The notes beneath the pieces were generated by a model. It was given only the letters and a program-made list of their open reading frames with translations. It did no database searches and was not told where the DNA came from. 64,000 bases of DNA from a virus, in the IMG/VR virus record IMGVR_UViG_3300018080_000002, positions 1 through 64,000 of that record; one strand, given 5' to 3'. This document shows, piece after piece, positions 35,427 to 63,844 of the stretch. Position numbers and translations under genes: made by a program. Position 1 is the stretch's first letter. Each line of letters opens with the position of its first letter.

Positions 35427-35782
35427 GTGATGTAGATGTTGGTAACATAATCTCAAAAATTAAAAAAAAACCTACTCGCAAAAAAAGAGCGCAAAAACAG
35501 AAAAAAGAATCGGCAAAACCGATAGTGGTTGAAGTTGAAAAGCAGGAGCCTGTTGCAGATATGTCCTTAGATCAGGATTTATCATATCTGGATAATCTGT
35601 CACCAGAGATGGTCAAATCTCTGAGGTTACAGGCTGGTTTACCTGAATTGAAGGTATTCAGTGTGTATCCGTATTGCATGAAACATGGGTTTATCAATCC
35701 GACAGATCCAAATGCAGCGAGGAGATTTTGCTCTATTTGCGGTTGTAAGATGATAGATAAAAAGTATCTCGGAGAGCTATAA
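35423..35782 (+). CDS. zinc-finger protein with basic N-terminus
   Basis: 119 aa. Lys/Arg-rich residues 12-32, acidic middle, and a C-terminal zinc site (C85 with H88 in YCMKHG, then CSICGC). Similar short zinc proteins occur near phage replication genes. ATGA-coupled to the gene before. Confidence 0.6.
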   Translation: MSDVDVGNIISKIKKKPTRKKRAQKQKKESAKPIVVEVEKQEPVADMSLDQDLSYLDNLSPEMVKSLRLQAGLPELKVFSVYPYCMKHGFINPTDPNAARRFCSICGCKMIDKKYLGEL

Positions 35783-35793
35783 AAAGTATGCGA

Positions 35794-36011
35794 ATGCGTT
35801 GGGTAGTGTAAATCGGCAAGAGGCAGTCTCGATTTATAGAGAAAATGTGCTTGTCGGGGTAGCGGGTGCCAGGTTCCAGTACTGTCTAGGGTCTTGGCGG
35901 TGGCCATGTAAACACTGTCCAGTGAAGGGTTAAGGCAGACAGCCCGAAAAGGATCATTGGGGATGTACCAGCTCCCCCCCAACGCATCGTTTTTGTTTTG
36001 GAGTATGCGTT
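35794..36011 (+). promoter_or_regulatory. structured leader with alternative pairing (riboswitch-like)
   Basis: ATGCGTTGGG (35794-35803) pairs perfectly with CCCAACGCAT (35978-35987), closing about 174 nt that hold AAATCG/CGATTT, CTGTCT/AGACAG with CACTG/CAGTG inside, and GGGGA/TCCCC, followed by a T-rich run. ATGCGTT recurs at 36005-36011 right before the start codon, so AACGCAT can pair there instead and trap the GGAG ribosome site in the loop. This is the logic of a translation switch. No known riboswitch class was recognised. Confidence 0.55.
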
Positions 36012-36212
36012 ATGCCAAATGAGATTCCTGATAATTACGAGCATATCGATCGTATCGAGATTCATATGGTTACAGGGGAAAAGTTGGTTTTGAGCGGTGA
36101 TGATGCTTATGCGTGGGCTGAGGCAGTTGACTGGGCTATACGAAGATTCCATGTTGAGCAATATGCTAGGTATGACAAGATAAAACGTGATTTCATATGG
36201 CGAAAGGAGTAG
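36012..36212 (+). CDS. hypothetical 66-aa protein
   Basis: Start codon lies directly after the switchable ATGCGTT segment of the leader. Mixed protein with a Trp-rich helix (AYAWAEAVDWAIRRFH). Its function is the best clue to what the leader senses, but it is not recognised. Confidence 0.65.
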   Translation: MPNEIPDNYEHIDRIEIHMVTGEKLVLSGDDAYAWAEAVDWAIRRFHVEQYARYDKIKRDFIWRKE

Positions 36213-36977: not shown

Positions 36978-37104
36978 GAAAGACTATTACATTGAGCTGT
37001 CTCCAGTAATGAAATGCCCTAAGTGCGGCATGACGTTGAATGAATTGAATGAAATTATAGGTAATAAGGAGCAGCAAGACAAAGAATTGCAGGAAAACAA
37101 ATGA
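36946..37104 (+). CDS. zinc-ribbon protein
   Basis: 52 aa from ATG 36946 (AGGAGG 7 nt upstream). CPKC...CPKC zinc ribbon then a charged helix. ATGA overlap with the intein gene. Confidence 0.6.
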   Translation: MQVRKYCPKCKKDYYIELSPVMKCPKCGMTLNELNEIIGNKEQQDKELQENK

Positions 37105-39620
37105 AAGAAAAAAAGACGTTATATTACCTAGTTAAGCAACTTGATGCTTGCTTTAGCTATCGGATTTTATGGCCGAGCAAATACCTCCAGAGGAATCACA
37201 ACTGGGAGTGTTACTACGACAAGATTGATGATTTGTTCTACATGAATCAGGATGGATCGTATAACTACGACAAGATCAAGCCTGGTCGGTTAGAGATCTT
37301 AGAGCAATGTGATTTAGTAGTTCTCCAGAGGGGTACGGATGCAGGACATTTGCAGTTGCTTCGGTTTATCCGAGATCAGTTCAAAAAGCCGATCATATAC
37401 GAATGTTTTACATATGATAATGAGGTGATGACTGAGTTTGGTCTCATGAGGATTGGAGATATAGTTGAAGAGGGATGGGATGTTAAAGTTTATAGCGATG
37501 ACGGTAAGTTGTATCCCATAGATAAGCATTTTTCAAGAGAGTTTGATGGATGGGTTTATCGAATAAAGACTTGGTATTTGTTTGATGAGATAGAGTGTAC
37601 GGATTCTCATAAGTTGATTGCTCATAAAGGCGGTTTTAACGATGAGATATTTGAAGAGATTGAAGTAAAGCATTTAAGAAAAGGTGATTTTTTAAAGATC
37701 CCATTTTTGAAGATCAATTGTGAAGTCCCGATGTCTTTTGATTTAGCGGATTATATTCCTGATGGATGGAATGTTGAAGATGATTTTGTTTATAAAGTGA
37801 GTAATTGTAAGACATTAAGATATATTGATTTTGATTACGATCTTAGTAGGCTGTTCGGTTATTTTTTATCTGAGGGATGCGTCAATAATAGTAATAGGTC
37901 GGTTACGTTTTCTTTCCATATAGATGAAAGAATATATATTGATGATGTTTTGTCTATTGTTAAGTCTAAGTTTGGTCATGATGCTAGTGTTTATTCCGAT
38001 TATCATGAAAGTTCTGTTAGGATTCAGATTAACTCTAAGATAGTAGGTTTATTTTTTAATGATATTTTTGGGGAGAATGTAAGAGCACCTACAAAGAAAG
38101 TGCCTAATTTTTATTTTTCTAGTATTGATCTGCGGTATGTTAAAGAAATGTTATTAGGTTTGTTTCGAGGAGATGGTAGTAACGTTAAAAATATCGGTTT
38201 TCGTCGTGGGGCTAGGTTAACAACATCGTCTAAGACTATGTTGTATCAGGTTCATAATTTGCTTTTAAGATTTGGGATCATTGCCAGTGTTTATAAGTTG
38301 TGGAGATCAGGGAAAGAACATGAAATCCGAGGAAGAACAGTTAATTCAGGTGATGGCTATGAGCTTAAGGTTAATGTAGTTGATGACATAGAAAGTATTG
38401 ATTTTAAAGAAAGATGCGAGTTAAAGACTAAGAATTTGAATCTAAAGGGTAAGGTGGATTTAGAGAATGAGTTTGCTTGGGTAGAGATCCAGAATATTTC
38501 AAGGGAAAAGAAGAAAGTCAAAGTTTTTAATATCTGTGTTAATCCCAGACATACTTATAATGTAAGAACTATCGCCAGTGCAAATAGCGACGACGACTAT
38601 ATTAACGTGCCGGAATGGAACACTGGCTATAGGTATTTTGCGCCAAGAAAAGCAGAGATAGTTCAGATGATTTCTGAGGTTGATGCTGTTACAGTCACAG
38701 TTCCGAGTCTTCGAGATTTGTATAGTAAGTACAATCCAAGAATTAAGATTCTGAAGAATTGTCTGGATTTCGAGAAAATAGATAAATCTCCTGCATTGGT
38801 GAATGACAGCAAGATGCTTAGAGCATCGATGTATAGATGTCCTAGAGATTATCTTGAGGAGTCCTTGAGAGATATTGTTTTAAAGCAGGTCGAGGCAGTC
38901 ATTAATAAAGAGGGTAAGCCTCTCAGCCAGGAGAACATCGATGCTGTTATGAATGGTCCCGTTCAGTTTAACGTGCCTGTGAATTTTGATTGGTATCGAG
39001 CGATACGTGATGACGAGAAAAAATTGTTGCTTGGTTGGGGTGGTTCTCCTACTCATATTCTCGATATTGAGGTGATGAGAGATCCTGTGATGAAAGTAAT
39101 GTCCAAGTATCGGTTTTTACACTTGGTATTTGTTGGATATTTGCATATGATGTCCTTATTGCGAAATTCTCCATATGGCGCGAATGTTCGTAAATGGCTT
39201 ATAGGGATGGATCTGAAGAGATTTTGGATATTCCATTTAGTAGGCGTTAAACACTACTATTCCCTATATAAAGCACTAGAATTTGATATTGGTCTGGCTC
39301 CTGTTTCTCCGGTCCAGTTTAACGCTTCCAAGAGCAATCTTAAGGTGATTGAGTACATGGCATTGGGCATGTATCCGATGGCTAGTGATTTCACCACTTA
39401 TCACGGCGTTATGGTTCCTGAAGGAAAAGAGAATGAGGATGTTGGAGTAGGGAGATTATGTAAGACCCAGGATGATTGGGAGCATAATCTTTATGATGTT
39501 CTGAATGATCACGATATGAGAGCTGAGTCGGTTTACCATAATGACCTGTTTGTAAGAAAGCACTACGACATTGATTTCGAGTCGGAACATTGGGATAAAT
39601 TTTATCGCAGCTTGCTGTGA
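37101..39620 (+). CDS. glycosyltransferase interrupted by an intein
   Basis: 839 aa precursor. Residues 1-101 and 496-839 are the two halves of a GT4-type glycosyltransferase: joined they read KPIIYE then SDDDYINVPEWN, and later KSNLKVIEYMALGMYPMASD, the donor-sugar-binding motif. Residues 102-495 are an intein. After splicing the enzyme is about 445 aa and probably adds a sugar to a surface or virion glycan, since RmlC, RmlD and other glycan genes follow. The substrate is unknown. Confidence 0.85.
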   Translation: MKEKKTLYYLVKQLDACFSYRILWPSKYLQRNHNWECYYDKIDDLFYMNQDGSYNYDKIKPGRLEILEQCDLVVLQRGTDAGHLQLLRFIRDQFKKPIIYECFTYDNEVMTEFGLMRIGDIVEEGWDVKVYSDDGKLYPIDKHFSREFDGWVYRIKTWYLFDEIECTDSHKLIAHKGGFNDEIFEEIEVKHLRKGDFLKIPFLKINCEVPMSFDLADYIPDGWNVEDDFVYKVSNCKTLRYIDFDYDLSRLFGYFLSEGCVNNSNRSVTFSFHIDERIYIDDVLSIVKSKFGHDASVYSDYHESSVRIQINSKIVGLFFNDIFGENVRAPTKKVPNFYFSSIDLRYVKEMLLGLFRGDGSNVKNIGFRRGARLTTSSKTMLYQVHNLLLRFGIIASVYKLWRSGKEHEIRGRTVNSGDGYELKVNVVDDIESIDFKERCELKTKNLNLKGKVDLENEFAWVEIQNISREKKKVKVFNICVNPRHTYNVRTIASANSDDDYINVPEWNTGYRYFAPRKAEIVQMISEVDAVTVTVPSLRDLYSKYNPRIKILKNCLDFEKIDKSPALVNDSKMLRASMYRCPRDYLEESLRDIVLKQVEAVINKEGKPLSQENIDAVMNGPVQFNVPVNFDWYRAIRDDEKKLLLGWGGSPTHILDIEVMRDPVMKVMSKYRFLHLVFVGYLHMMSLLRNSPYGANVRKWLIGMDLKRFWIFHLVGVKHYYSLYKALEFDIGLAPVSPVQFNASKSNLKVIEYMALGMYPMASDFTTYHGVMVPEGKENEDVGVGRLCKTQDDWEHNLYDVLNDHDMRAESVYHNDLFVRKHYDIDFESEHWDKFYRSLL
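37404..38585 (+). mobile_element. intein with LAGLIDADG homing endonuclease
   Basis: 394 aa. It begins at Cys 102 (CFTYDNEVMTEFG, block A), has TDSH (block B Thr-x2-His) at about residue 180, two DOD endonuclease motifs (LFGYFLSEGC and LLGLFRGDGS), and ends NPRHTYNVRTIASAN before extein Ser. The usual penultimate His is Ala here, a known but less common variant. The insertion site is the conserved D-D-D motif of the glycosyltransferase. The intein is visibly more AT-rich than the extein, a sign of transfer. Confidence 0.9.
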
Positions 39621-40732: not shown

Positions 40733-41583
40733 GCAAGGAAATATCGGCTTTTTTCGGTGAGAATAATGTAGAATGTTATCTCACTGATTTTAATGTGGAT
40801 ATCACGAAAGAGAGATCTATTCTCAATTTCTTGAAGGATAGAAAAATTACTGGAATTATTAATTGTGCTGCTTATACGAATGTTGAGGAGTGTGAGGAGT
40901 GTCCGATTGATCATGTTAATGTTAATATGATCGGTGCATATAATTTGGCTTTAGTAGCCAAGAAATTCGATGTTCCTATTATTCATTTTTCGACTGATTA
41001 TGTATTTAGTGGCACCTCCAAACGTCCATACCAAGAGTCTGATATTACGGGTCCAATTAACAAGTACGGTCTGAGTAAACTGTATTCCGAGAATTACATC
41101 ATGACTAATTCTGATAAATATTTTATTTTTCGGATTTCCTGGCTATATGGCCGTTTTGGTAGTAGTTTTGTTAATAAGGTCATGGACAAGATTATGGCAT
41201 TTGAGGATCTTAAGATTGTTGATGATCAAGTCGGAAGTTTGACTAATGCGTTTGATGTTGCCAAGTTGGTTTATGCTTTAGCAGTTCAGCCTGTGGATAA
41301 ATATGGGGTGTATCATTTTACTGGCTATGGTGCTGCTAGTTGGTTTGATATAGCCAAATTCATCGGTAGGTGCATGTTTAGTATGGGTATTGTATCCAGA
41401 GAGCCAAAAGTGGAGCCTATCAGCTCATGGGCTGCGAATTTAAAGGCAAAAAGACCAGTTTATTCCTACTTGGATAAGTCAAAAATTGAAAATGAATTGG
41501 GAATTGCTTCAGCAGATTGGAAGGATTCCTTGGTCGGTTACATAATAAATAGGTACGAGCATGTCTATCGTAGTGATTGGTGA
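40699..41583 (+). CDS. rmlD: dTDP-4-dehydrorhamnose reductase
   Basis: 294 aa short-chain reductase. NAD(P)H-binding TGANGLLG at residues 5-12, FSTDYVFSGTS, and the catalytic Tyr-Lys in YGLSKLYSE. It completes dTDP-L-rhamnose from the RmlC product. Overlaps the next gene by 23 nt. Confidence 0.9.
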   Translation: MWWITGANGLLGKEISAFFGENNVECYLTDFNVDITKERSILNFLKDRKITGIINCAAYTNVEECEECPIDHVNVNMIGAYNLALVAKKFDVPIIHFSTDYVFSGTSKRPYQESDITGPINKYGLSKLYSENYIMTNSDKYFIFRISWLYGRFGSSFVNKVMDKIMAFEDLKIVDDQVGSLTNAFDVAKLVYALAVQPVDKYGVYHFTGYGAASWFDIAKFIGRCMFSMGIVSREPKVEPISSWAANLKAKRPVYSYLDKSKIENELGIASADWKDSLVGYIINRYEHVYRSDW

Positions 41584-42550
41584 TTTGATTTTAGACGATT
41601 ATCGTTTTGTTGATGTCAGTAGAGTGAGTCCTGAAGCTCCATGTTTGATTGGTCTGGATAAATCTCAGGATTTGAGGCTTGGTGGTGCGGCCAACGTTGC
41701 CTGTAATATAAGACAATTGACTAACAATTTGCTGTTGGTTGGCCAGTGTGAGGAGAATGAGTATCGTCCGCTTTTGGATAAATACGATGTGGATTGTAAG
41801 ATTCTCGATGGCAAACACTCCATTAAGATGCGTTTTATTGATGAGAGAACGAACGTCCAGCTTTTTAGGTATGACATAGAAAAAGTGATTCCTCAGAACA
41901 GTCGGGATAATTTTACAAATTATGTTGATTTTGTTGATAAGATAGATTTTAAAAGCTTCAATATATGCGTAATAGTCGATTATAAAAAGGGCATGATAAG
42001 AACATGCGATATTAAAAGGCTATCTGGCAGTAAGATCAATATTGTCAGCACTAAGAATGAACGACCTCATCTGGTTTTACCAAGACCGAGACATTGGAAA
42101 CGCTTAAAAAATGCTCCTGTTAATATACTGATCTTTAATAATAAAGAATATAATGCAGCTAAGGAGATTTGGGGTTATAATTATATTATACGTACTGAGG
42201 GTGATCGTGGAATGACGATCTTTAAGGTGATTGAAGATCCTGAAGAGATAGATCACCGTGAAGATGTTCTGGCGAAAATAGATGCGATCAAGGTTGATAT
42301 TTTTGACGTTACTGGTGCTGGCGATACTGTGACAGCAGTAGTAGCATTCTGTTTGGATAAGTACGGATTCAGTGAAGAAAATTTGGTTAAGGCGTGTAGA
42401 TGCGCTAATTATGCAGCGTCTAAGGTGGTAACGATTTCAGGAACGGCGGTCGTTCAGGATAGTGTCGATGAAATCTCTGTGATGTTTGAGGGTGTGAATG
42501 AAGATAAACGTAAAGAGATCAAAGACGATTCGGAAAAATTGGGGAAGTGA
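41561..42550 (+). CDS. HldE/RfaE-type sugar kinase (PfkB family)
   Basis: 329 aa. GDLILDDYRFVDVSRVSPEAP at the start, GGAANVACN substrate motif and DVTGAGDTV with the catalytic Asp near the C-terminus mark the heptose-7-phosphate kinase domain of HldE, which makes the ADP-heptose precursor of LPS core. The usual C-terminal adenylyltransferase domain is absent. Overlaps both neighbours. A different sugar phosphate as substrate is possible. Confidence 0.75.
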   Translation: MSIVVIGDLILDDYRFVDVSRVSPEAPCLIGLDKSQDLRLGGAANVACNIRQLTNNLLLVGQCEENEYRPLLDKYDVDCKILDGKHSIKMRFIDERTNVQLFRYDIEKVIPQNSRDNFTNYVDFVDKIDFKSFNICVIVDYKKGMIRTCDIKRLSGSKINIVSTKNERPHLVLPRPRHWKRLKNAPVNILIFNNKEYNAAKEIWGYNYIIRTEGDRGMTIFKVIEDPEEIDHREDVLAKIDAIKVDIFDVTGAGDTVTAVVAFCLDKYGFSEENLVKACRCANYAASKVVTISGTAVVQDSVDEISVMFEGVNEDKRKEIKDDSEKLGK

Positions 42551-44698: not shown

Positions 44699-46390
44699 AT
44701 GCCTGTCACTCTTGTTATCCCCACGATAAACCAAACTCAGATGATTGATGATTGTTTAACGTCCTTTTTTAAATTTCATAAAGACGAACATGAGATAATT
44801 GTTGTTGACGATGGTAGTCCACCTGACACTCAAAAAGCGGTTCAAGCAATATGCGAGAAACATGGTGCGGATTTTTTATCAAATTCCTTTAATGTTGGAT
44901 TTTCCAATACAGTCAATCGTGGGATTGATAGAGCTACGAATGACATCGTTATTTTGGTGAACAATGATATTGTTTTTACCGAAGAAATTACGAGTAAATT
45001 TGAGAGCAGTTTCAAGAATGATGAGCGGATCGGTATCGTTGGCGGTTTATTGTTCTATCCGAACGGTACGATTCAGCATGGAGGCATATTTAGGACCGAA
45101 AGCTGGTTTATGCATAGAGCTTGGCATAAAACCCTGAAAGATTCTCCGGTGGTCAAACAGGATTGTTACATTATAGCGGTTACAGGCGCATTATTTGGCA
45201 TCAGGAAAGCGATGTCGGATAAGATAGGGGTTATGAACCCAACGTATTTCATCGCCTGTGAGGACACTGAGATGTGTCTGAGAGCGTGGAAAAATGGCTG
45301 GCGGGTTTTTTATAATGGATCGATCCAAGCGATTCATGCTGAAGGAGCCACTAGAGGCCATAACAACGAAGTCAAAATGAAAAAAGGCCGAGATTGGATG
45401 ATCAAAGAAAAGGAAACCAATCGTCGGTTTGCCCAAGATATGAAAAGATTTGATTTCAAGGTGATTGAATCTCGCATTAAAGATGCAAACTCGAATATTA
45501 GTCGAGTCAAGTTGGCTAAGTTAGATCAAGGTTGTGGAGTGGTGGGTGTTAACAGAGCGGGTGCGTTGGGAGACGTTCTCCTAACCACTGGATTGATTAG
45601 GAAATTGAAGAAAAAGTTTCCAAATTATGACATTCATGTTGCTACTGGTTGTGGCGCAGTCTTTAAAAATAATCCAAATATTAGTCGGCTGGTGAGGTCA
45701 AGGGATCAGTTAGTAGGCAATATCATTTTTGACCTGGATCTGGTTTATGAGAAATCTCCTAAAATGCCGATTGTCGAAGCATACCATCGGTCGGTTTTTG
45801 GCGATGGAGATCTGGTGTCAGATACACAGCCTGAGATGTTCCCAGATGAAAATGACGAAAAGTCTTTAATGGAAAAATTACCGCCAAGATTTTTAATTCC
45901 TCCAGTTGCAGTAGTCCATATGGGGGTTGGCTGGCCGAATAGAACATGGCAAAGGCAAAAATGGTTGAGAGTAATTGATCATTTGGTCAGTAAGGATGTT
46001 CGGATTGCGGTTGTCGGTAAGGCTGGAGATTTTAAGCCAGAGACCAAAAACAATGTTTTAAATCTGACAAATAAGCTTTCTATTCATGAGATCATGATAT
46101 TGATTCAGAAAAGCAATGTTTTTATCGGCATGGATACAGGTTTGTTGCATATAGCATCATGTACGGATACTCCTTTAGTGGGTCTATTTACGTGTGCTAA
46201 TCCGATTTATCGATTAGTTGAGAGAAAAGCTCAGAGTGTAGCATTGATTCCCAAAGTGAGTTGCCGTTTTTGTTTGCATGAAGAGGAGCCTCCTGTCACC
46301 TTTGCAGGATGTAAACGGGGGAATTATCAGTGTTTGAATGATATCACTGTAGCGGATGTTATCAAGTCTGCGAATAAGTTTTTGTTTTGA
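44699..46390 (+). CDS. GT2-GT9 fusion glycosyltransferase
   Basis: 563 aa. Residues 1-235 are a GT2 transferase: VIPTINQT, VVDDGSPPDT, LVNNDIVF (DxD-like) and EDTEMCLRAWKNGWRV. Residues 280-560 are a GT9 heptosyltransferase-like domain: GVNRAGALGDVLLTTGLIR, MGVGWPNRTWQRQKW and GMDTGLLHIA. The two would add successive sugars. The GT9 half fits the HldE-type kinase upstream, which makes a heptose precursor. Confidence 0.8.
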   Translation: MPVTLVIPTINQTQMIDDCLTSFFKFHKDEHEIIVVDDGSPPDTQKAVQAICEKHGADFLSNSFNVGFSNTVNRGIDRATNDIVILVNNDIVFTEEITSKFESSFKNDERIGIVGGLLFYPNGTIQHGGIFRTESWFMHRAWHKTLKDSPVVKQDCYIIAVTGALFGIRKAMSDKIGVMNPTYFIACEDTEMCLRAWKNGWRVFYNGSIQAIHAEGATRGHNNEVKMKKGRDWMIKEKETNRRFAQDMKRFDFKVIESRIKDANSNISRVKLAKLDQGCGVVGVNRAGALGDVLLTTGLIRKLKKKFPNYDIHVATGCGAVFKNNPNISRLVRSRDQLVGNIIFDLDLVYEKSPKMPIVEAYHRSVFGDGDLVSDTQPEMFPDENDEKSLMEKLPPRFLIPPVAVVHMGVGWPNRTWQRQKWLRVIDHLVSKDVRIAVVGKAGDFKPETKNNVLNLTNKLSIHEIMILIQKSNVFIGMDTGLLHIASCTDTPLVGLFTCANPIYRLVERKAQSVALIPKVSCRFCLHEEEPPVTFAGCKRGNYQCLNDITVADVIKSANKFLF

Positions 46391-57578: not shown

Positions 57579-57607
57579 TTGACTCCAATTTGCTTATCGA
57601 TTACAAG
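57579..57607 (+). promoter_or_regulatory. promoter for the RNA array
   Basis: TTGACT (57579-57584), 17 nt, TACAAG (57602-57607). -10-like sequences also sit 3-8 nt before some individual units (TAGTAT, TAAAAT, GATAAT), so separate promoters are possible. Confidence 0.45.
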
Positions 57608-57613
57608 GGTATG

Positions 57614-57702
57614 GTCTATTGAACTTGTAGGACAATGGACGACTGGTATCTGAATGACACAGCTTCGAGAGTTTCACTCTTTTTTTGTCATTTAGATGCC
57701 AG
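57614..57702 (+). ncRNA. two-hairpin RNA at the head of the Y RNA array
   Basis: GTCTATTG pairs with CAATGGAC (57614-57640) and a 17-bp hairpin joins 57643-57659 to 57686-57702 (all positions paired, some as G-U). It lacks the conserved Y RNA loop sequences of the units downstream. Function unknown. Confidence 0.5.
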
Positions 57703-57755
57703 CCTGCTTGTGTTTTGATGTTTGATGTATTGCGTACTTAAAACCGTTCAAAAAC

Positions 57756-57825
57756 GGTAGCGAGATGTAAGTGAGGGCTACTTCGGCCATTATGAAATTC
57801 CCCTTGCTGATTTGTTTCCGCTATC
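57756..57825 (+). ncRNA. Y RNA-like RNA, unit 1 (plain hairpin type)
   Basis: 70 nt. Closing helix GGTAGCG/CGCTATC (57756-57762 with 57819-57825), conserved 5' loop strand GAGATGTAAG, inner helix GTGAGGG/CCCCTTGC, and conserved 3' strand TGATTTGTTTCC. No tRNA-like insert; the apex is a short loop. This is the minimal Ro60-binding Y RNA shape, matching the other four units in layout. Confidence 0.65.
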
Positions 57826-57838
57826 ATAGTATTTGTAC

Positions 57839-57950
57839 TGACGAGATGTATGTGAGAGTTACTTCGTAAGTTCGACTCTTATCCCTCCCTCCATTCCATT
57901 ACGGGGGGGTTGTCCAGTGGGGACATTTCTCTTACAGTCTGTTTCCGTCA
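57839..57950 (+). ncRNA. Y RNA-like RNA, unit 2, with permuted tRNA-like domain
   Basis: Closing helix TGACG/CGTCA. Inner helix GTGAGAG with CTCTTAC. The insert is tRNA-like in permuted order: T arm first (GTAAG-TTCGACT-CTTAT, 57866-57882), then the acceptor 3' strand CCCTCCC, a connecting loop, the acceptor 5' strand GGGGGGG, then D arm GTCC-AGTGG-GGAC (57912-57924). The acceptor stem is thus closed by a loop and the anticodon arm is replaced by the Ro60-binding helix. Bacterial Y RNAs are known to carry tRNA-like domains. Confidence 0.75.
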
Positions 57951-57966
57951 TCAATCAGGTAAAATT

Positions 57967-58078
57967 TGCAGAGTAGTGTAGGTTAGAGATACTTCGTGTA
58001 ATGGTTACACATCTGACTCGAAATCGGACGTAGCGGTTCAAATCCGCAGTTTTCCTCTTACTGATTGTTCTCTCTGCA
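57967..58078 (+). ncRNA. Y RNA-like RNA, unit 3, with tRNA-like domain in normal order
   Basis: Closing helix TGCAGAG/CTCTGCA. The insert has D arm GTGT-AATGGTT-ACAC, anticodon arm TCTGA-CTCGAAA-TCGGA (anticodon CGA at 58019-58021) and T arm GCGG-TTCAAAT-CCGC. The acceptor stem is not convincingly paired, so it is tRNA-like rather than a working tRNA. Confidence 0.7.
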
Positions 58079-58093
58079 TTAACGATATTTGAT

Positions 58094-58229
58094 ATAGGCG
58101 CAGTGTAGATTATGCTTACTTCGCATTGAAAGCGGCGGGTCGTTGGTTCGAGTCCAACTCTGGGGGTTTCCCCAGATAGCTCAGTTGGTAGAGCAGCTTC
58201 GTATGGCATTATTGATTGTTCTCGTCTAT
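58094..58229 (+). ncRNA. Y RNA-like RNA, unit 4, with permuted tRNA-like domain
   Basis: 136 nt. Closing helix ATAGGCG/CGTCTAT. Insert order: anticodon 3' strand, T arm GTTGG-TTCGAGT-CCAAC (58142-58158), acceptor 3' TCTGGGG, 4-nt loop, acceptor 5' CCCCAGA (58170-58176), TA, D arm GCTC-AGTTGGTA-GAGC, anticodon 5' strand. The 7-bp acceptor stem is perfect. This is a textbook circularly permuted tRNA fold fused through its anticodon arm to the Y RNA stem. Confidence 0.8.
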
Positions 58230-58248
58230 ACTAATTTTGCTGATAATG

Positions 58249-58386
58249 AGAGCGTGATGTAGATTATAGACTTCCTTCGCATTTTAGCTCACTTGGTAGA
58301 GCACAAAAGTTAGAATTTTGAGGTAGCGGGTTCAATCCCCGCAAATGTGACCATTAGGTCGGGTCTTATTCGCCTGTTTCCGCTCT
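58249..58386 (+). ncRNA. Y RNA-like RNA, unit 5, with a complete tRNA cloverleaf
   Basis: 138 nt. Closing helix AGAGCG/CGCTCT, conserved 5' GTGATGTAG and 3' CTGTTTCC strands, and a helix AGACTT/GGGTCT leading into a full tRNA cloverleaf (58278-58350) attached by its acceptor end, unlike units 2 and 4. Followed by TTTTA. Confidence 0.7.
58278..58350 (+). tRNA. tRNA cloverleaf inside Y RNA unit 5 (anticodon UAG)
   Basis: Acceptor CGCATTT/AAATGTG (7 bp), D arm GCTC-ACTTGGTA-GAGC, anticodon arm CAAAA-GTTAGAA-TTTTG with UAG at 58311-58313, 5-nt variable loop, T arm GCGGG-TTCAATC-CCCGC, discriminator A. UAG would read CUA (Leu), but the class II variable arm of Leu tRNAs is missing. It may be a mimic or may be cut free; sequence alone cannot tell. 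Confidence 0.6.
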
Positions 58387-58407
58387 TTTAATACGTTAGG
58401 TGATATT

Positions 58408-60084: not shown

Positions 60085-60145
60085 TATGAGTGATGTTGTA
60101 TATCAACAAATTATAAGGTTGATCTTGTAAGAGAGGATTATTCGC

Positions 60146-60211
60146 ATGTTTTTTTTAGCACCACAAAAGCCAGAGATTAATGGTCATCAAGATTGGTACG
60201 ATGATCCGTAG
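60146..60211 (+). CDS. 21-aa leader peptide upstream of Ro60
   Basis: MFFLAPQKPEINGHQDWYDD plus Pro. AGAGG lies upstream. Its 5' part overlaps segment 1 and its stop overlaps segment 2 of the attenuator-like element, so ribosome position could choose between the two RNA folds. Real translation is unproven. Confidence 0.45.
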   Translation: MFFLAPQKPEINGHQDWYDDP

Positions 60212-60270
60212 GTGCTAATAAATAAAGTTTTCCCAACGCCTTAGCACCAAAAAGCTGAGGCGTTTTTTTT
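60155..60270 (+). promoter_or_regulatory. attenuator-like element before Ro60
   Basis: Segment 1 TTAGCACC (60155-60162), segment 2 GGTGCTAA (60211-60218), segment 3 TTAGCACC (60241-60248). Segment 2 is the exact complement of both 1 and 3. Segment 3 overlaps the rising arm of the terminator. Pairing 2:3 would block the terminator; pairing 1:2 would allow it. This is the classic attenuation layout. Confidence 0.6.
60235..60270 (+). terminator. intrinsic terminator before Ro60
   Basis: AACGCCTTAGC pairs with GCTGAGGCGTT (11 bp, one G-U), then a run of T. It lies 26 nt before the Ro60 start. Confidence 0.8.
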
Positions 60271-60295
60271 ATCCCGTATTTTTCGGAGGTGTAAG

Positions 60296-61876
60296 GTGTC
60301 AAGGTTTAATTCAACAGCAACTAAGGGGGTTCAGACTGTAAAAAATCACGGTGGAGCTGATTCGTACAAACTATCCAAGGAAGTAGAATTGTATTCGGTT
60401 GTTTGCAATAGTTTGATAACGGACAAGTATTACGAGAGTGGAGATAGTCAGCTCGCTAGAATCATAGAGTTGGTAAAAGACTGCGATCCAGTTTTTGTCG
60501 CTAACTTGGCATCCTATGCGCGTAACGAAATGAATTTGAGGACGGTTCCTGTGGTCTTGAGTACGTTGTTATGTAGGAATGTGGGTGGATCTGTAGCCAA
60601 AGATGCGGTTTTCAGGACGGTAAAACGTGCTGATGAAATCACTGAGGTTCTTGGTTATTTCGCTCAATTAAACAAAGACAATTGGAAAAAGATTAGCGAA
60701 AAAGGCCATATCAAGACTAAGAAAATGTCGAAATACTCTCACTCTTTAAAGAGAGGTATTGCGAAGGTATTTGAGTCTGGAAGGTTCGATCGATACCAAT
60801 TTTCTAAGTATAACAGGCAACGAGAATTTTCGTTCAAAGATGCTTTGTTTCTTTGCAATCCTAAGCCTCAGAACGATGAGATGGCTGAACTATTCAAGTT
60901 GATTGCGAGTGATGAATTGGGGTCTGCTGATACTTGGGAAGCTAAACAATCGGCTCTAGGTCAGGAGAATAAGGAGAAATCGGAGGATGAGGCGAAGGTA
61001 TCCAAGCTAGAGGTTTGGAAAGAGATGATTGCGAACAAAAAGCTTGGACACATGGCTTTGCTGAGAAACCTCAACAACATCCTTAAATGTAAGCCTGACT
61101 CTGCTTTTATGGATGATGTATGTCGAGAGCTGGTTCGTGGTGCTAAGAAAAGTAAGCAGTTTCCTTTTAGGTACTGGAGTGCCTATAAGACATTACAGAA
61201 AGATCATGGTCATCACTCAGATCCATTTCTGTTTCAGAAAGTATCTGATGCTCTGGAGCAGGCGATTAGGGATAGTATCAAGAGTATGAGTAAGTTTGAT
61301 GGAAATACTTTGATTGCCTGTGACGTTTCGGGATCGATGGTTACACCTGTTTCAGATAAGTCGATCATTCAAAATATCGATATAGGTTTGGTTCTTGGTT
61401 GTTTGTTAAAAAACGTTCAGAAACTAAATACTATTTTAGGTGTTTTCGGTGACGAATTTAAGATCATTACAGGTATCGGTAATGGGGTTTTGGCTGATGT
61501 CAGGAGTTCATTTGACTGGTCTCATAAAGTCGGTTGGTCGACTATGGGATACAAGGTCATTGAATACCTGAACAAAAGAAATTTGGATGTGAATCAGGTT
61601 CTTGTTTTCACTGACTGTCAGGTTTATGGATCTGCTGGAAATGGATACTACAGCAATGGTAATGAGATGGAGAGACAGTGGAGTATTTACAAGAGCAAGC
61701 ATCCTAATGCAAAGCTCTATATGTTCGATCTTTCTGGATATGGAAACGTGCCTCTAAGATTGGACAAAGGCGATGTTATTCATGTCGCTGGCTGGTCCGA
61801 TAGGATCTTTGAGGCGGTTGAGTATCTAAGAAAGGGATCTGATGCAGTAGATATGATTATGAACTATACTAGGTAA
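60296..61876 (+). CDS. rsr: Ro60 (TROVE/vWA) RNA-binding protein
   Basis: 526 aa, GTG start with CGGAGGT 7 nt upstream. The N-terminal TROVE region holds HEAT-like helices (FVANLASYARNEMNLRTVPV, ALFLCNPKP, MALLRNLNNILK, FPFRYWSAYKTL). The C-terminal vWA domain has the MIDAS motif D343-x-S345-x-S347 (ACDVSGSM) and FTDCQVYG (D440). Ro60 is a ring that binds misfolded RNA ends in its hole and Y RNA on its outside, and in bacteria links Y RNA to a nuclease. The Y RNA array 2 kb upstream supplies its partners. Length is close to bacterial Rsr (about 530 aa). tRNA genes follow. Confidence 0.9.
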   Translation: MSRFNSTATKGVQTVKNHGGADSYKLSKEVELYSVVCNSLITDKYYESGDSQLARIIELVKDCDPVFVANLASYARNEMNLRTVPVVLSTLLCRNVGGSVAKDAVFRTVKRADEITEVLGYFAQLNKDNWKKISEKGHIKTKKMSKYSHSLKRGIAKVFESGRFDRYQFSKYNRQREFSFKDALFLCNPKPQNDEMAELFKLIASDELGSADTWEAKQSALGQENKEKSEDEAKVSKLEVWKEMIANKKLGHMALLRNLNNILKCKPDSAFMDDVCRELVRGAKKSKQFPFRYWSAYKTLQKDHGHHSDPFLFQKVSDALEQAIRDSIKSMSKFDGNTLIACDVSGSMVTPVSDKSIIQNIDIGLVLGCLLKNVQKLNTILGVFGDEFKIITGIGNGVLADVRSSFDWSHKVGWSTMGYKVIEYLNKRNLDVNQVLVFTDCQVYGSAGNGYYSNGNEMERQWSIYKSKHPNAKLYMFDLSGYGNVPLRLDKGDVIHVAGWSDRIFEAVEYLRKGSDAVDMIMNYTR

Positions 61877-61916
61877 ATATAGCGACGATGTTAGAACATA
61901 GCATTGTCGCTATTTT

Positions 61917-61992
61917 GGGGTATGGGACTGCAAGGAGTGGTCACTGGCCTGTCACGCCAGAAATCAGGCGGGTTCAATTCCCGCATATCCCG
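61917..61992 (+). tRNA. tRNA-Asp(GUC)
   Basis: Acceptor GGGGTAT/ATATCCC, anticodon arm CTGGC-CTGTCAC-GCCAG, T arm GCGGG-TTCAATT-CCCGC, discriminator G. Confidence 0.85.
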
Positions 61993-61997
61993 TTTAC

Positions 61998-62069
61998 GCG
62001 GCTATAGGACAATGGCTAGTCCATCGGATTTTCAGTCCGGGCATCGGGGTTCGACTCCCCGTAGCCGTA
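61998..62069 (+). tRNA. tRNA-Glu(UUC)
   Basis: Acceptor GCGGCTA/TAGCCGT, D arm GGAC-GTCC, anticodon arm TCGGA-TTTTCAG-TCCGG, T arm CGGGG-TTCGACT-CCCCG. Confidence 0.9.
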
Positions 62070-62134
62070 TTTTGTATGACTGCTTCCGGTTTTTTTACGG
62101 AACCATATGTAGCAACGTTGGGAGAGTAAGGTTT

Positions 62135-62207
62135 GGAAGGGTAACTCAGTTGGTAGAGTGGCATCCTGATAAGGTGCTGGTCGATGGTTCAAGTCCATCC
62201 CTTTCCA
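62135..62207 (+). tRNA. tRNA-Ile(GAU)
   Basis: Acceptor GGAAGGG/CCTTTCC, anticodon arm GCATC-CTGATAA-GGTGC, T arm GATGG-TTCAAGT-CCATC. Confidence 0.9.
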
Positions 62208-62217
62208 CTTGTTTTAG

Positions 62218-62287
62218 GGGGCATCCTGTAGACGAGGTAACGCTCAAGTACGGGGGGATGTTGCGGGTTCGATCCCCGTGTGCTCCA
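62218..62287 (+). tRNA. degenerate tRNA-like gene
   Basis: Acceptor GGGGCAT/GTGCTCC and T arm GCGGG-TTCGATC-CCCGT are good, but no D or anticodon arm with U33 can be built between them; 70 nt. Probably a decayed tRNA or a tRNA mimic. Confidence 0.45.
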
Positions 62288-62296
62288 CTTGAATGA

Positions 62297-62368
62297 TGGG
62301 ATGTAGCTCAGTGGTAGAGCAAGCGGCTGTTAACCGCTAGGTCGCGGGTTCGATCCCCGCTTTCCCAG
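62297..62368 (+). tRNA. tRNA-Asn(GUU)
   Basis: T1 start, D arm GCTC-AGTGGTA-GAGC, anticodon arm AGCGG-CTGTTAA-CCGCT, T arm GCGGG-TTCGATC-CCCGC. One T-T mismatch in the acceptor stem. Confidence 0.85.
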
Positions 62369-62373
62369 CTTAA

Positions 62374-62446
62374 GCAACGGTAGCTCAGTCGGTAGAGCAC
62401 CAGACTGAAAATCTGGGTGTCGTTGGTTCAATTCCAACCCGTTGCA
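62374..62446 (+). tRNA. tRNA-Phe(GAA)
   Basis: Acceptor GCAACGG/CCGTTGC, anticodon arm CCAGA-CTGAAAA-TCTGG, T arm GTTGG-TTCAATT-CCAAC. Confidence 0.95.
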
Positions 62447-62456
62447 CTGGTTTTAA

Positions 62457-62529
62457 GGGTCATTAGTTCAGATGGTAGAACACGACACTTTTAATGTCGG
62501 GGTCGCTGGTTCAAGTCCAGCATGACTCA
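62457..62529 (+). tRNA. tRNA-Lys(UUU)
   Basis: Acceptor GGGTCAT/ATGACTC, anticodon arm CGACA-CTTTTAA-TGTCG, T arm GCTGG-TTCAAGT-CCAGC. Confidence 0.9.
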
Positions 62530-62538
62530 TTTGATTAT

Positions 62539-62611
62539 TGGGGTGTAGAGCAGTTGGTAGCTCAACAGTTTTTGATGCTGTCGGTCGCTGGTTCGAGTCC
62601 AGCCACCCCAG
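62539..62611 (+). tRNA. tRNA-Gln(UUG)
   Basis: Acceptor TGGGGTG/CACCCCA, D arm GAGC-GCTC, anticodon arm ACAGT-TTTTGAT-GCTGT, T arm GCTGG-TTCGAGT-CCAGC. Confidence 0.9.
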
Positions 62612-62730
62612 TTTTTAACTCATATGAGTCGAAAACTGCCCTAAAGTTATCGTTTAAAGACATTTTATGGGTAGTTTAGAGGTTGTTTGGGCTGTTAAAT
62701 ACAAATTGTGAGTATTTAGATGTTTTGTTT

Positions 62731-62804
62731 AGGGGAATAGCTCAGTTGGCTAGAGCGATAGATTCCAAATCTATAGGTCATGGGTTCGATCCCTATTTCC
62801 CCTG
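62731..62804 (+). tRNA. tRNA-Trp(CCA)
   Basis: Acceptor AGGGGAA/TTCCCCT, anticodon arm ATAGA-TTCCAAA-TCTAT, discriminator G. About 120 nt without a gene precede it; nothing seen there. Confidence 0.9.
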
Positions 62805-62863
62805 TTTGATTCGACACCGTTTGTAGGTTTGTCGGTGACTAAGTTTAAAAAACCTGCGCTTAT

Positions 62864-62937
62864 GGTGGGCTTATCTCAGTTGGTAGAGAGACGGGTTGTG
62901 ATCTCGTAGGTCGTGGGTTCGAGTCCCACAGTTCACC
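62864..62937 (+). tRNA. tRNA-His(GUG)
   Basis: Acceptor GTGGGCT/AGTTCAC with the extra G-1 opposite C73 that marks tRNA-His; anticodon arm ACGGG-TTGTGAT-CTCGT. Confidence 0.9.
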
Positions 62938-62948
62938 CTTTTTTATAT

Positions 62949-63022
62949 CGGGGTATAGCGCAGTCAGGTAGCGCACTTGCTTTGGGAGCAAGTGGTCATC
63001 CGTTCAAATCGGATTACCCCGA
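62949..63022 (+). tRNA. tRNA-Pro(UGG)
   Basis: Acceptor CGGGGTA/TACCCCG, anticodon arm CTTGC-TTTGGGA-GCAAG, T arm ATCCG-TTCAAAT-CGGAT. Confidence 0.95.
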
Positions 63023-63037
63023 CCATAAGATTGCTAC

Positions 63038-63103
63038 AGGCGTTGAAAGATCATTAATTTTTAGCCGACGACAGAGTGCTGAGATCCTTTGACGCCTTTT
63101 TAT
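63038..63103 (+). terminator. long-stem RNA hairpin ending in U-run
   Basis: 15-nt arms 63038-63052 and 63083-63097 pair at 14 positions (some G-U) around a 30-nt loop, then TTTATT. A terminator for the first tRNA block or a small RNA. Confidence 0.6.
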
Positions 63104-63229
63104 TGACATTCATTTTTACCAATGAGAAACTTGAATTTTAGGCTTTGTGTCTATTTATCTTTATTTTAGGCTTATGTATATGTTTTTAAGTTTGTACTCA
63201 AGTTTATATCTATCCTTACTCTATAAGAG

Positions 63230-63310
63230 TCAGGGGGTTGGTATGGTTTGATACGCTTATAGCATTGCATGAAAAACCCCTGATGTCTTAACCGATTTCA
63301 GGGGTTTTTT
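63230..63310 (+). promoter_or_regulatory. terminator with competing antiterminator before tRNA-Tyr
   Basis: Terminator: AAAACCCCTGA with TTCAGGGGTTTTTT (63272-63310). An earlier TCAGGGGGTT (63230-63239) can pair with the same AACCCCTGA arm and would prevent it. 63104-63229 is AT-rich with TTTTAGGCTT twice and no gene. Confidence 0.55.
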
Positions 63311-63317
63311 GATTTTT

Positions 63318-63408
63318 GGGGGAGCTGCGAAGATTGGCTGGTTTCGCATCGGATTGTAAATCCGGTCCCACAGGGTAAACGTTGTAGGTTCGAGTCCTAC
63401 CTCCCTCA
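63318..63408 (+). tRNA. tRNA-Tyr(GUA)
   Basis: Class II. Acceptor GGGGGAG/CTCCCTC, anticodon arm TCGGA-TTGTAAA-TCCGG, variable-arm hairpin CCC-ACA-GGG, T arm GTAGG-TTCGAGT-CCTAC. Confidence 0.9.
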
Positions 63409-63413
63409 CTTAT

Positions 63414-63487
63414 GGCTCAGTATCCCAATTGGTAGAGGAAGCTGGCTTAGACCCAGTTGGTTGTCAGTTCGAGTCTGACCTGAGCTA
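63414..63487 (+). tRNA. tRNA with anticodon UAG (Leu), short variable loop
   Basis: Acceptor GGCTCAG/CTGAGCT, anticodon arm GCTGG-CTTAGAC-CCAGT, variable loop only 5 nt, T arm GTCAG-TTCGAGT-CTGAC, A73. Bacterial Leu tRNAs normally have a long variable arm. Confidence 0.85.
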
Positions 63488-63497
63488 CTTGTTTTTT

Positions 63498-63572
63498 GGT
63501 CCCGTAGCCCAACTTGGTAGAGGCAATGGATTTAAAATCCATGAGTTATCAGTTCAAATCTGATCGGGACTA
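63498..63572 (+). tRNA. tRNA with anticodon UAA (Leu), short variable loop
   Basis: Acceptor GGTCCCG/CGGGACT, anticodon arm ATGGA-TTTAAAA-TCCAT, 5-nt variable loop, T arm ATCAG-TTCAAAT-CTGAT, A73. Shares the G1-U72 pair and D-arm style of the preceding tRNA. Confidence 0.85.
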
Positions 63573-63576
63573 CTCT

Positions 63577-63660
63577 GGAGGGATGGCCGAATGGTAAGGC
63601 TCTGGATTTGAAATCCAGTGGCGGGTAAAACCGATGGGGGTTCGATTCCCTCTCCCTCTG
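63577..63660 (+). tRNA. tRNA-Ser(UGA)
   Basis: Class II. Acceptor GGAGGGA/TCCCTCT, anticodon arm CTGGA-TTTGAAA-TCCAG, long variable arm, discriminator G. Confidence 0.9.
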
Positions 63661-63669
63661 CTTTTCTTT

Positions 63670-63755
63670 GGAGAGTTGCCCGAATGGTTAAGGGAGCACA
63701 TTGCTAATGTGTCGGTCTGAAATATGATCTCAGGGTTCGAGTCCCTGACTCTCCG
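63670..63755 (+). tRNA. tRNA-Ser(GCU)
   Basis: Class II. Acceptor GGAGAGT/ACTCTCC, anticodon arm GCACA-TTGCTAA-TGTGT, long variable arm, discriminator G. Confidence 0.9.
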
Positions 63756-63844
63756 TTTTTCTTCAAGTCTTTATTCAATTGATACAATTGCTGAAATGGA
63801 GGATAATGACAAAAAAGAATTTATGTCCAAATTGAGAGATAATA

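What the first reader, a model, noticed from the sequence alone, without database searches (positions are those of the whole stretch)
35794..36011. Riboswitch-like leader with three alternate segments
ATGCGTTGGG / CCCAACGCAT closes a folded 174-nt domain; the same ATGCGTT recurs right before the start codon, so a second pairing would trap the GGAG site. A clear on/off layout with an unknown ligand or temperature signal and an unknown 66-aa gene.
Basis: partly seen in the sequence, partly recalled or inferred. Interest (0 to 1): 0.7.

Follow-up and report, generated by a model that had tools for sequence, protein, structure and literature searches.

The report
Orphan structured RNA in a phage
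A roughly 200-base non-coding stretch in a T4-like phage genome probably makes a folded RNA that ends at a transcription-terminator-like U-run, but the proposed on/off switch over the ribosome site is not supported and no relatives were found to show what the RNA does.

Summary
The gap has no coding signal and is GC-rich. As RNA it folds better than 99% of its own shuffles, but 7% of windows in this genome do as well after composition correction. The closing stem is really 13 bp and abuts a 9-of-10 U tract (TTTTTGTTTT), so it looks more like the end of an RNA, or a terminator, than a ribosome-site switch. The proposed alternative hairpin lies about 9 kcal/mol above the closed form, has computed probability 0 at 20-45 C, and would hold GGAG mostly in its loop. 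Rfam, blastn, exact-pattern scans and a single-sequence covariance model over T4-like relatives found no homologue; the nearest large relative lacks the locus. So conservation, the key test, could not be made. Best reading: an orphan, lineage-specific structured phage RNA (small RNA, or attenuator of the 66-aa gene). Interest is modest. A Ro60 gene plus Y-RNA-like element in the same phage may deserve more attention.

The parts
35790..35803 (+). 5' arm of closing stem P1 (GCG, bulged A, ATGCGTTGGG)
   Evidence: sequence; pair probability 0.83-0.95
35804..35977 (+). 174-nt interior of the RNA domain. One well-predicted hairpin (35814-35820/35850-35856 with inner stems); the rest has several near-equal folds
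   Evidence: duplex -11.1 kcal/mol for the alternative 35799-35809/35912-35922
35814..35856 (+). best-supported internal hairpin (CGGCAAG / CTTGTCG, TCTC/GAGA)
   Evidence: pair probabilities 0.85-0.97
35978..35990 (+). 3' arm of P1 (CCCAACGCAT CGT)
35990..35999 (+). U tract TTTTTGTTTT directly after P1: possible intrinsic terminator / RNA 3' end
   Evidence: tracts with >=9 T of 10 number 18 in 17 kb non-coding against 19 in 140 kb coding; this is one of them
36000..36003 (+). GGAG, likely ribosome-binding site of the 66-aa gene
   Evidence: sequence, 8 nt before ATG
   Evidence: alternative pairing probability 0
36012..36212 (+). 66-aa gene of unknown function, no family match
   Evidence: codon usage typical of the phage; no Pfam/PHROG match; AlphaFold low confidence, beta hairpin plus long helix
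35423..35782 (+). upstream 119-aa gene, stop codon immediately before the element
   Evidence: no tblastn match in phages

Best explanation
The gap between the 119-aa and 66-aa genes encodes a compact structured RNA of about 200 nt (about 35790-35999) in a T4-like phage. Its two ends pair into a 13-bp stem P1, and the RNA stops at the U tract that follows. P1 therefore serves as the end-protecting and terminating stem of a stable RNA, made either from its own promoter or by ending or processing the upstream operon transcript. Because the U tract lies just before the ribosome site of the 66-aa gene, P1 formation would also limit read-through into that gene. An early fold in which the 5' arm pairs with 35912-35922 could delay P1, which makes attenuation of the 66-aa gene possible. 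Shown: the sequence features, absence of coding signal, computed stability, and lack of homologues. Inferred: that it is transcribed, that it ends at the U tract, and any regulatory role.
For: No coding signal in any + frame, unlike all flanking genes. GC is 51% in the gap against about 40% around it, as in the tRNA array (0.51). Lowest 194-nt MFE among sampled windows of the genome. P1 pair probability 0.83-0.95. The + strand folds better than the - strand (-75.3 against -61.2). P1 abuts a U tract of a kind about 8 times denser in this phage's non-coding DNA than in its coding DNA. Truncated transcripts fold with the 5' arm paired internally (the 35799-35809/35912-35922 duplex is -11.1 kcal/mol) and flip to P1 once 35987 is made.
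Against: The composition-corrected z-score (-2.46) is matched by 7% of genome windows, so stability alone does not prove a functional RNA. A P1 loop of about 174 nt is unusual for an intrinsic terminator, and the simple terminator scan reported none on the + strand. No promoter is demonstrated; TATAAAAA at 35778 is not part of a motif enriched between genes. There is no homologue, so no covariation.
Confidence: 0.42

Rival explanations
1. Translational riboswitch or thermosensor: the 3' P1 arm switches partner to ATGCGTT (36005-36011) and hides the ribosome site.
For: A 7-nt perfect complement next to the start codon; the isolated hairpin is the MFE of 35979-36030 at -8.4 kcal/mol.
Against: Computed probability 0.000 at 20-45 C; about 9.3 kcal/mol above the P1 form. 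GGAG is mostly in the loop. The hairpin is no better than shuffles (z -0.39, 58 of 200). No Rfam riboswitch match.
Confidence: 0.1
2. Transcription attenuator of the 66-aa gene: a ligand, protein or translation event stabilises the early fold (5' arm with 35912-35922), preventing P1 and letting polymerase read through.
For: An 11-bp alternative helix (-11.1 kcal/mol) forms in the modelled transcripts ending at 35960-35980, then P1 displaces it. P1 is followed by a U tract.
Against: Alternative helices of this kind are common in long RNAs; no homologues, no ligand candidate; the U tract is interrupted by G.
Confidence: 0.2
3. Insertion of a small mobile or duplicated sequence: 8-bp direct repeat AGTATGCG (35785-35792 and 36002-36009) flanks a 209-nt segment with internal inverted repeats, with no RNA function.
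For: The exact repeat; the locus and its neighbourhood are absent at the syntenic place in relative G002; GC differs from the flanks.
Against: The inverted repeats are not placed symmetrically against the direct repeats; a single copy in the genome; no match in phages or plasmids, and only chance-level hits in pattern scans. An 8-nt repeat is weak evidence.
Confidence: 0.1
4. Ordinary intergenic sequence, a decayed gene remnant or chance folding, without function.
For: z-score matched by 7% of windows; repeats of this strength occur about once per shuffled genome; no conservation seen.
Against: Phage genes here are tightly packed, and a 229-nt non-coding gap with raised GC and a 13-bp closing stem next to a U tract is unusual; local shuffles give such a repeat in only 0.3%.
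Confidence: 0.18

Closest known systems
manA (RF01745) and wcaG motifs of T4-like cyanophages (Weinberg et al. 2010, PMC2864571)
   Same: Structured intergenic RNAs in T4-like phages, placed as potential 5' UTRs, near sugar or exopolysaccharide genes. Here glycosyltransferase genes lie downstream (37101, 44699).
   Different: No match to any Rfam covariance model. Here the next gene is an ORFan and the RNA sits between small genes of unknown function.
Bacterial/phage small RNAs with paired ends and a rho-independent 3' end (for example T4 stable RNAs near the tRNA cluster; own knowledge)
   Same: A compact non-coding unit between genes, ends paired, U tract at the 3' end.
   Different: No sequence match; transcription not shown; P1 closes a 174-nt multi-branched loop.
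Y RNA (YrlA, RF02553), partner of Ro60
   Same: Stem made of the two ends, U-rich 3' end; this phage does encode a TROVE/Ro60-type protein.
   Different: No Rfam match here and no tRNA-like module; a better Y-RNA-like element lies at 58135-58197.
Riboswitches with an anti-P1 expression platform
   Same: 5' arm and 3' arm have alternative partners.
   Different: No known aptamer class; no demonstrated ligand; the proposed downstream partner is not competitive.

Membership tests
Known riboswitch class (Rfam) | Match to a curated aptamer covariance model | tested here: not met
   nothing but chance-level matches
Known riboswitch class (Rfam) | Mutually exclusive pairing that changes ribosome or polymerase access | tested here: inconclusive
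Known riboswitch class (Rfam) | Specific ligand binding | not testable with these tools
   needs in-line probing or SHAPE
RNA thermometer | Ribosome site paired at low and free at high temperature by a marginally stable helix | tested here: inconclusive
   P1 hardly changes (0.94 to 0.92) and the SD stays paired (unpaired probability 0.00-0.05) from 20 to 45 C; model energies only
Intrinsic terminator / attenuator | GC-rich stem followed at once by a U tract | tested here: met
   13-bp P1, then TTTTTGTTTT
Intrinsic terminator / attenuator | Compact hairpin with small loop | tested here: not met
   the loop is 174 nt of structured RNA; the consensus scan found no + strand terminator
manA / wcaG phage motifs | Match to RF01745 or the wcaG model | tested here: not met
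Group I intron | Conserved catalytic core (Rfam Intron_gpI) | tested here: not met
   no match even at E 10
Y RNA (YrlA) | tRNA-like module plus Ro60-binding stem | tested here: not met
   no Rfam match here; the match lies elsewhere in the window
Structured non-coding RNA (any) | Compensatory changes in relatives | not testable with these tools
   no homologue found

The most novel reading that the evidence does not exclude
An undescribed class of phage regulatory RNA, restricted to a poorly sampled T4-like lineage, in which a roughly 200-nt domain senses a metabolite or a phage or host protein and gates termination at P1 in front of a small ORFan gene during infection.
Probability: 0.1. Interest if true: 0.6.

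Novelty: new member of a known kind. Interest (0 to 1): 0.3.

Why it matters
Structured RNAs of T4-like phages are under-described. If this one is transcribed and conserved it would be a new phage RNA family, and its terminator position would make the control of a neighbouring ORFan gene easy to test. At present it is a single-sequence candidate without conservation.

Tried and rejected
Rfam at gathering and at E<=10: only a miRNA and a lncRNA at chance level. blastn against phages and plasmids: nothing relevant. Paralogue in the own genome: none. tblastn or locus search with the 66-aa, 119-aa, 127-aa, 218-aa and primase proteins: no useful relatives. Exact patterns from the RNA in IMG/VR and GTDB genomes: hits at chance level; the covariance model found only short chance matches in them. 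Single-sequence covariance model over the phage, its T4-like relatives and reference phages: only itself; such a model reaches only fairly close relatives, so this is weak negative evidence. T4-type late promoter TATAAATA: the site TATAAAAA at 35778 would place a start near 35790, but the motif is not enriched between genes. Hidden coding: a 43-codon TTG frame in the gap has codon usage unlike the phage's genes (-0.20 against 0.25). Antisense ORFs of 136 and 200 aa overlap real + strand genes and were dismissed. AlphaFold of the 66-aa protein: pLDDT 67, uninformative.

Full report
SETTING. The window is the first 64 kb of a 157,357-base IMG/VR virus record. The genome is that of a myovirus of a divergent T4-like lineage. 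Its major head protein matches phrog_138 (E 4e-72), its head protease phrog_207 and its tail sheath phrog_23. The best reference head proteins are only about 30-38% identical. In IMG/VR the nearest head proteins are one identical protein on a 4.6-kb fragment, then 57% and 48% identity. Nearly all genes lie on the + strand.

OBSERVATION. The inverted repeat is 10 bp, extended to 13 bp past a bulged A. The arms are 174 nt apart. The upstream 119-aa gene stops at 35782 and the 66-aa gene starts at 36012, leaving a 229-nt gap. None of the three + frames of the gap has the phage's codon usage, whereas the genes on both sides do. The gap's GC is 51% against about 40% around it.

IS IT MORE THAN CHANCE? 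Raw folding energy puts 35794-35987 first among 1,621 windows of the genome, partly because of GC content. Against its own dinucleotide shuffles the z-score is -2.46, with 2 of 200 shuffles as good. Across 481 sampled windows 7% reach that z, including coding windows. Repeats of this strength number 3 in the genome, against 1.2 (range 0-4) in shuffled genomes; within shuffles of this gap only 0.3% have one. The signal is therefore suggestive, not conclusive.

THE PROPOSED SWITCH. Partition functions at 20, 25, 30, 37 and 45 C give P1 0.92-0.94 and the alternative AACGCAT/ATGCGTT 0.000. Forcing the alternative costs 9.3 kcal/mol. The alternative hairpin taken alone is no more stable than shuffles (z -0.39), and GGAG sits mostly in its loop. 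In the P1 form the model already pairs GGAG with 36023-36027 inside the gene, so the simple 'P1 on, alternative off' picture does not follow from the energies. Thermodynamic models of 200-nt RNAs are uncertain, but a 9 kcal/mol gap with a strong competing stem is large.

WHAT THE ANATOMY SUGGESTS INSTEAD. P1 runs into TTTTTGTTTT. Tracts with at least 9 T in 10 are about eight times denser in this phage's non-coding DNA than in its coding DNA (18 in 17 kb against 19 in 140 kb). Some of those tracts follow hairpins, for example CGCCTTAGC...GCTGAGGCG TTTTTTTT at 60263. P1 plus U tract is thus a plausible 3' end for an RNA whose 5' end would be near 35790. A competing early fold, 35799-35809 with 35912-35922 (11 bp, -11.1 kcal/mol), dominates in modelled transcripts up to 35980 and is displaced once the 3' arm is made. 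That leaves attenuation of the 66-aa gene open. The standard terminator scan did not report the site; it allows loops of 3-8 bases only. No promoter was established; TATAAAAA at 35778-35785 is well placed but its motif is not enriched between genes.

RELATIVES. No Rfam family matches. No similar DNA was found in 50,697 phage records, 72,556 plasmids, elsewhere in the own genome, or in 25 related or reference virus records (only short chance-level matches). The single-sequence covariance model found only itself in the relatives searched and only short chance matches in the pattern-derived loci. In the nearest large relative, G002 (126 kb), the primase homologue (match ending at 76,868) is followed about 120 bases later by the homologue of the gene at window 46683. 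The whole 12-kb stretch that holds this RNA here is therefore absent from that place, and the element is accessory or lineage-specific.

CONCLUSION. The sequence features are real. The riboswitch or thermosensor mechanism as described is not supported. The most likely reading is a stand-alone or attenuator-like structured RNA ending at the U tract, unrelated by sequence to any described family. The closest described kind is the structured intergenic RNA of T4-like cyanophages (manA and wcaG motifs, PMC2864571), from which it is distinct by test. Steps shown are the sequence, codon, folding and database results; transcription, termination and regulation are inferred.

Noticed in passing
window 58135-58197 (+), with window 60296-61876 (+): A Y-RNA-like element (Rfam YrlA RF02553, 39.4 bits, E 2.5e-6 over 4.5 kb, below the gathering score of 69) with a permuted tRNA order (T arm, acceptor-like stem, D arm) lies 2.1 kb upstream of a TROVE/Ro60-family gene (PF05731, E 6e-18). 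The phage may carry its own Ro60 and Y RNA.
   Followed up: partly
window 57600-58400: Repeated tRNA-like or degenerate sequences (recurring TGTAGATTATGCTTACTTCGCATT-like stretches) around two odd tRNA genes; holds the window with the most extreme folding z-score found (57619, z -5.3).
   Followed up: no
window 61904-63756: Array of about 15 tRNA genes directly downstream of the TROVE gene.
   Followed up: no
window 37101-39620: A glycosyltransferase-like gene interrupted by an intein with a LAGLIDADG domain (PF14528 E 4e-17, PF14890).
   Followed up: no
window 44699-46390 and 41561-42550: A fused GT2/GT9 glycosyltransferase (PF00535 + PF01075) and a pfkB-type sugar kinase, part of a sugar-gene region that the relative G002 lacks between primase and helicase.
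   Followed up: no
window 35785-35792 and 36002-36009: 8-bp direct repeat AGTATGCG flanking the RNA element, as a target-site duplication might.
   Followed up: partly
window 60085-60295: Gap upstream of the TROVE gene with an 8-bp TTAGCACC/GGTGCTAA closure followed by a classical terminator.
   Followed up: no
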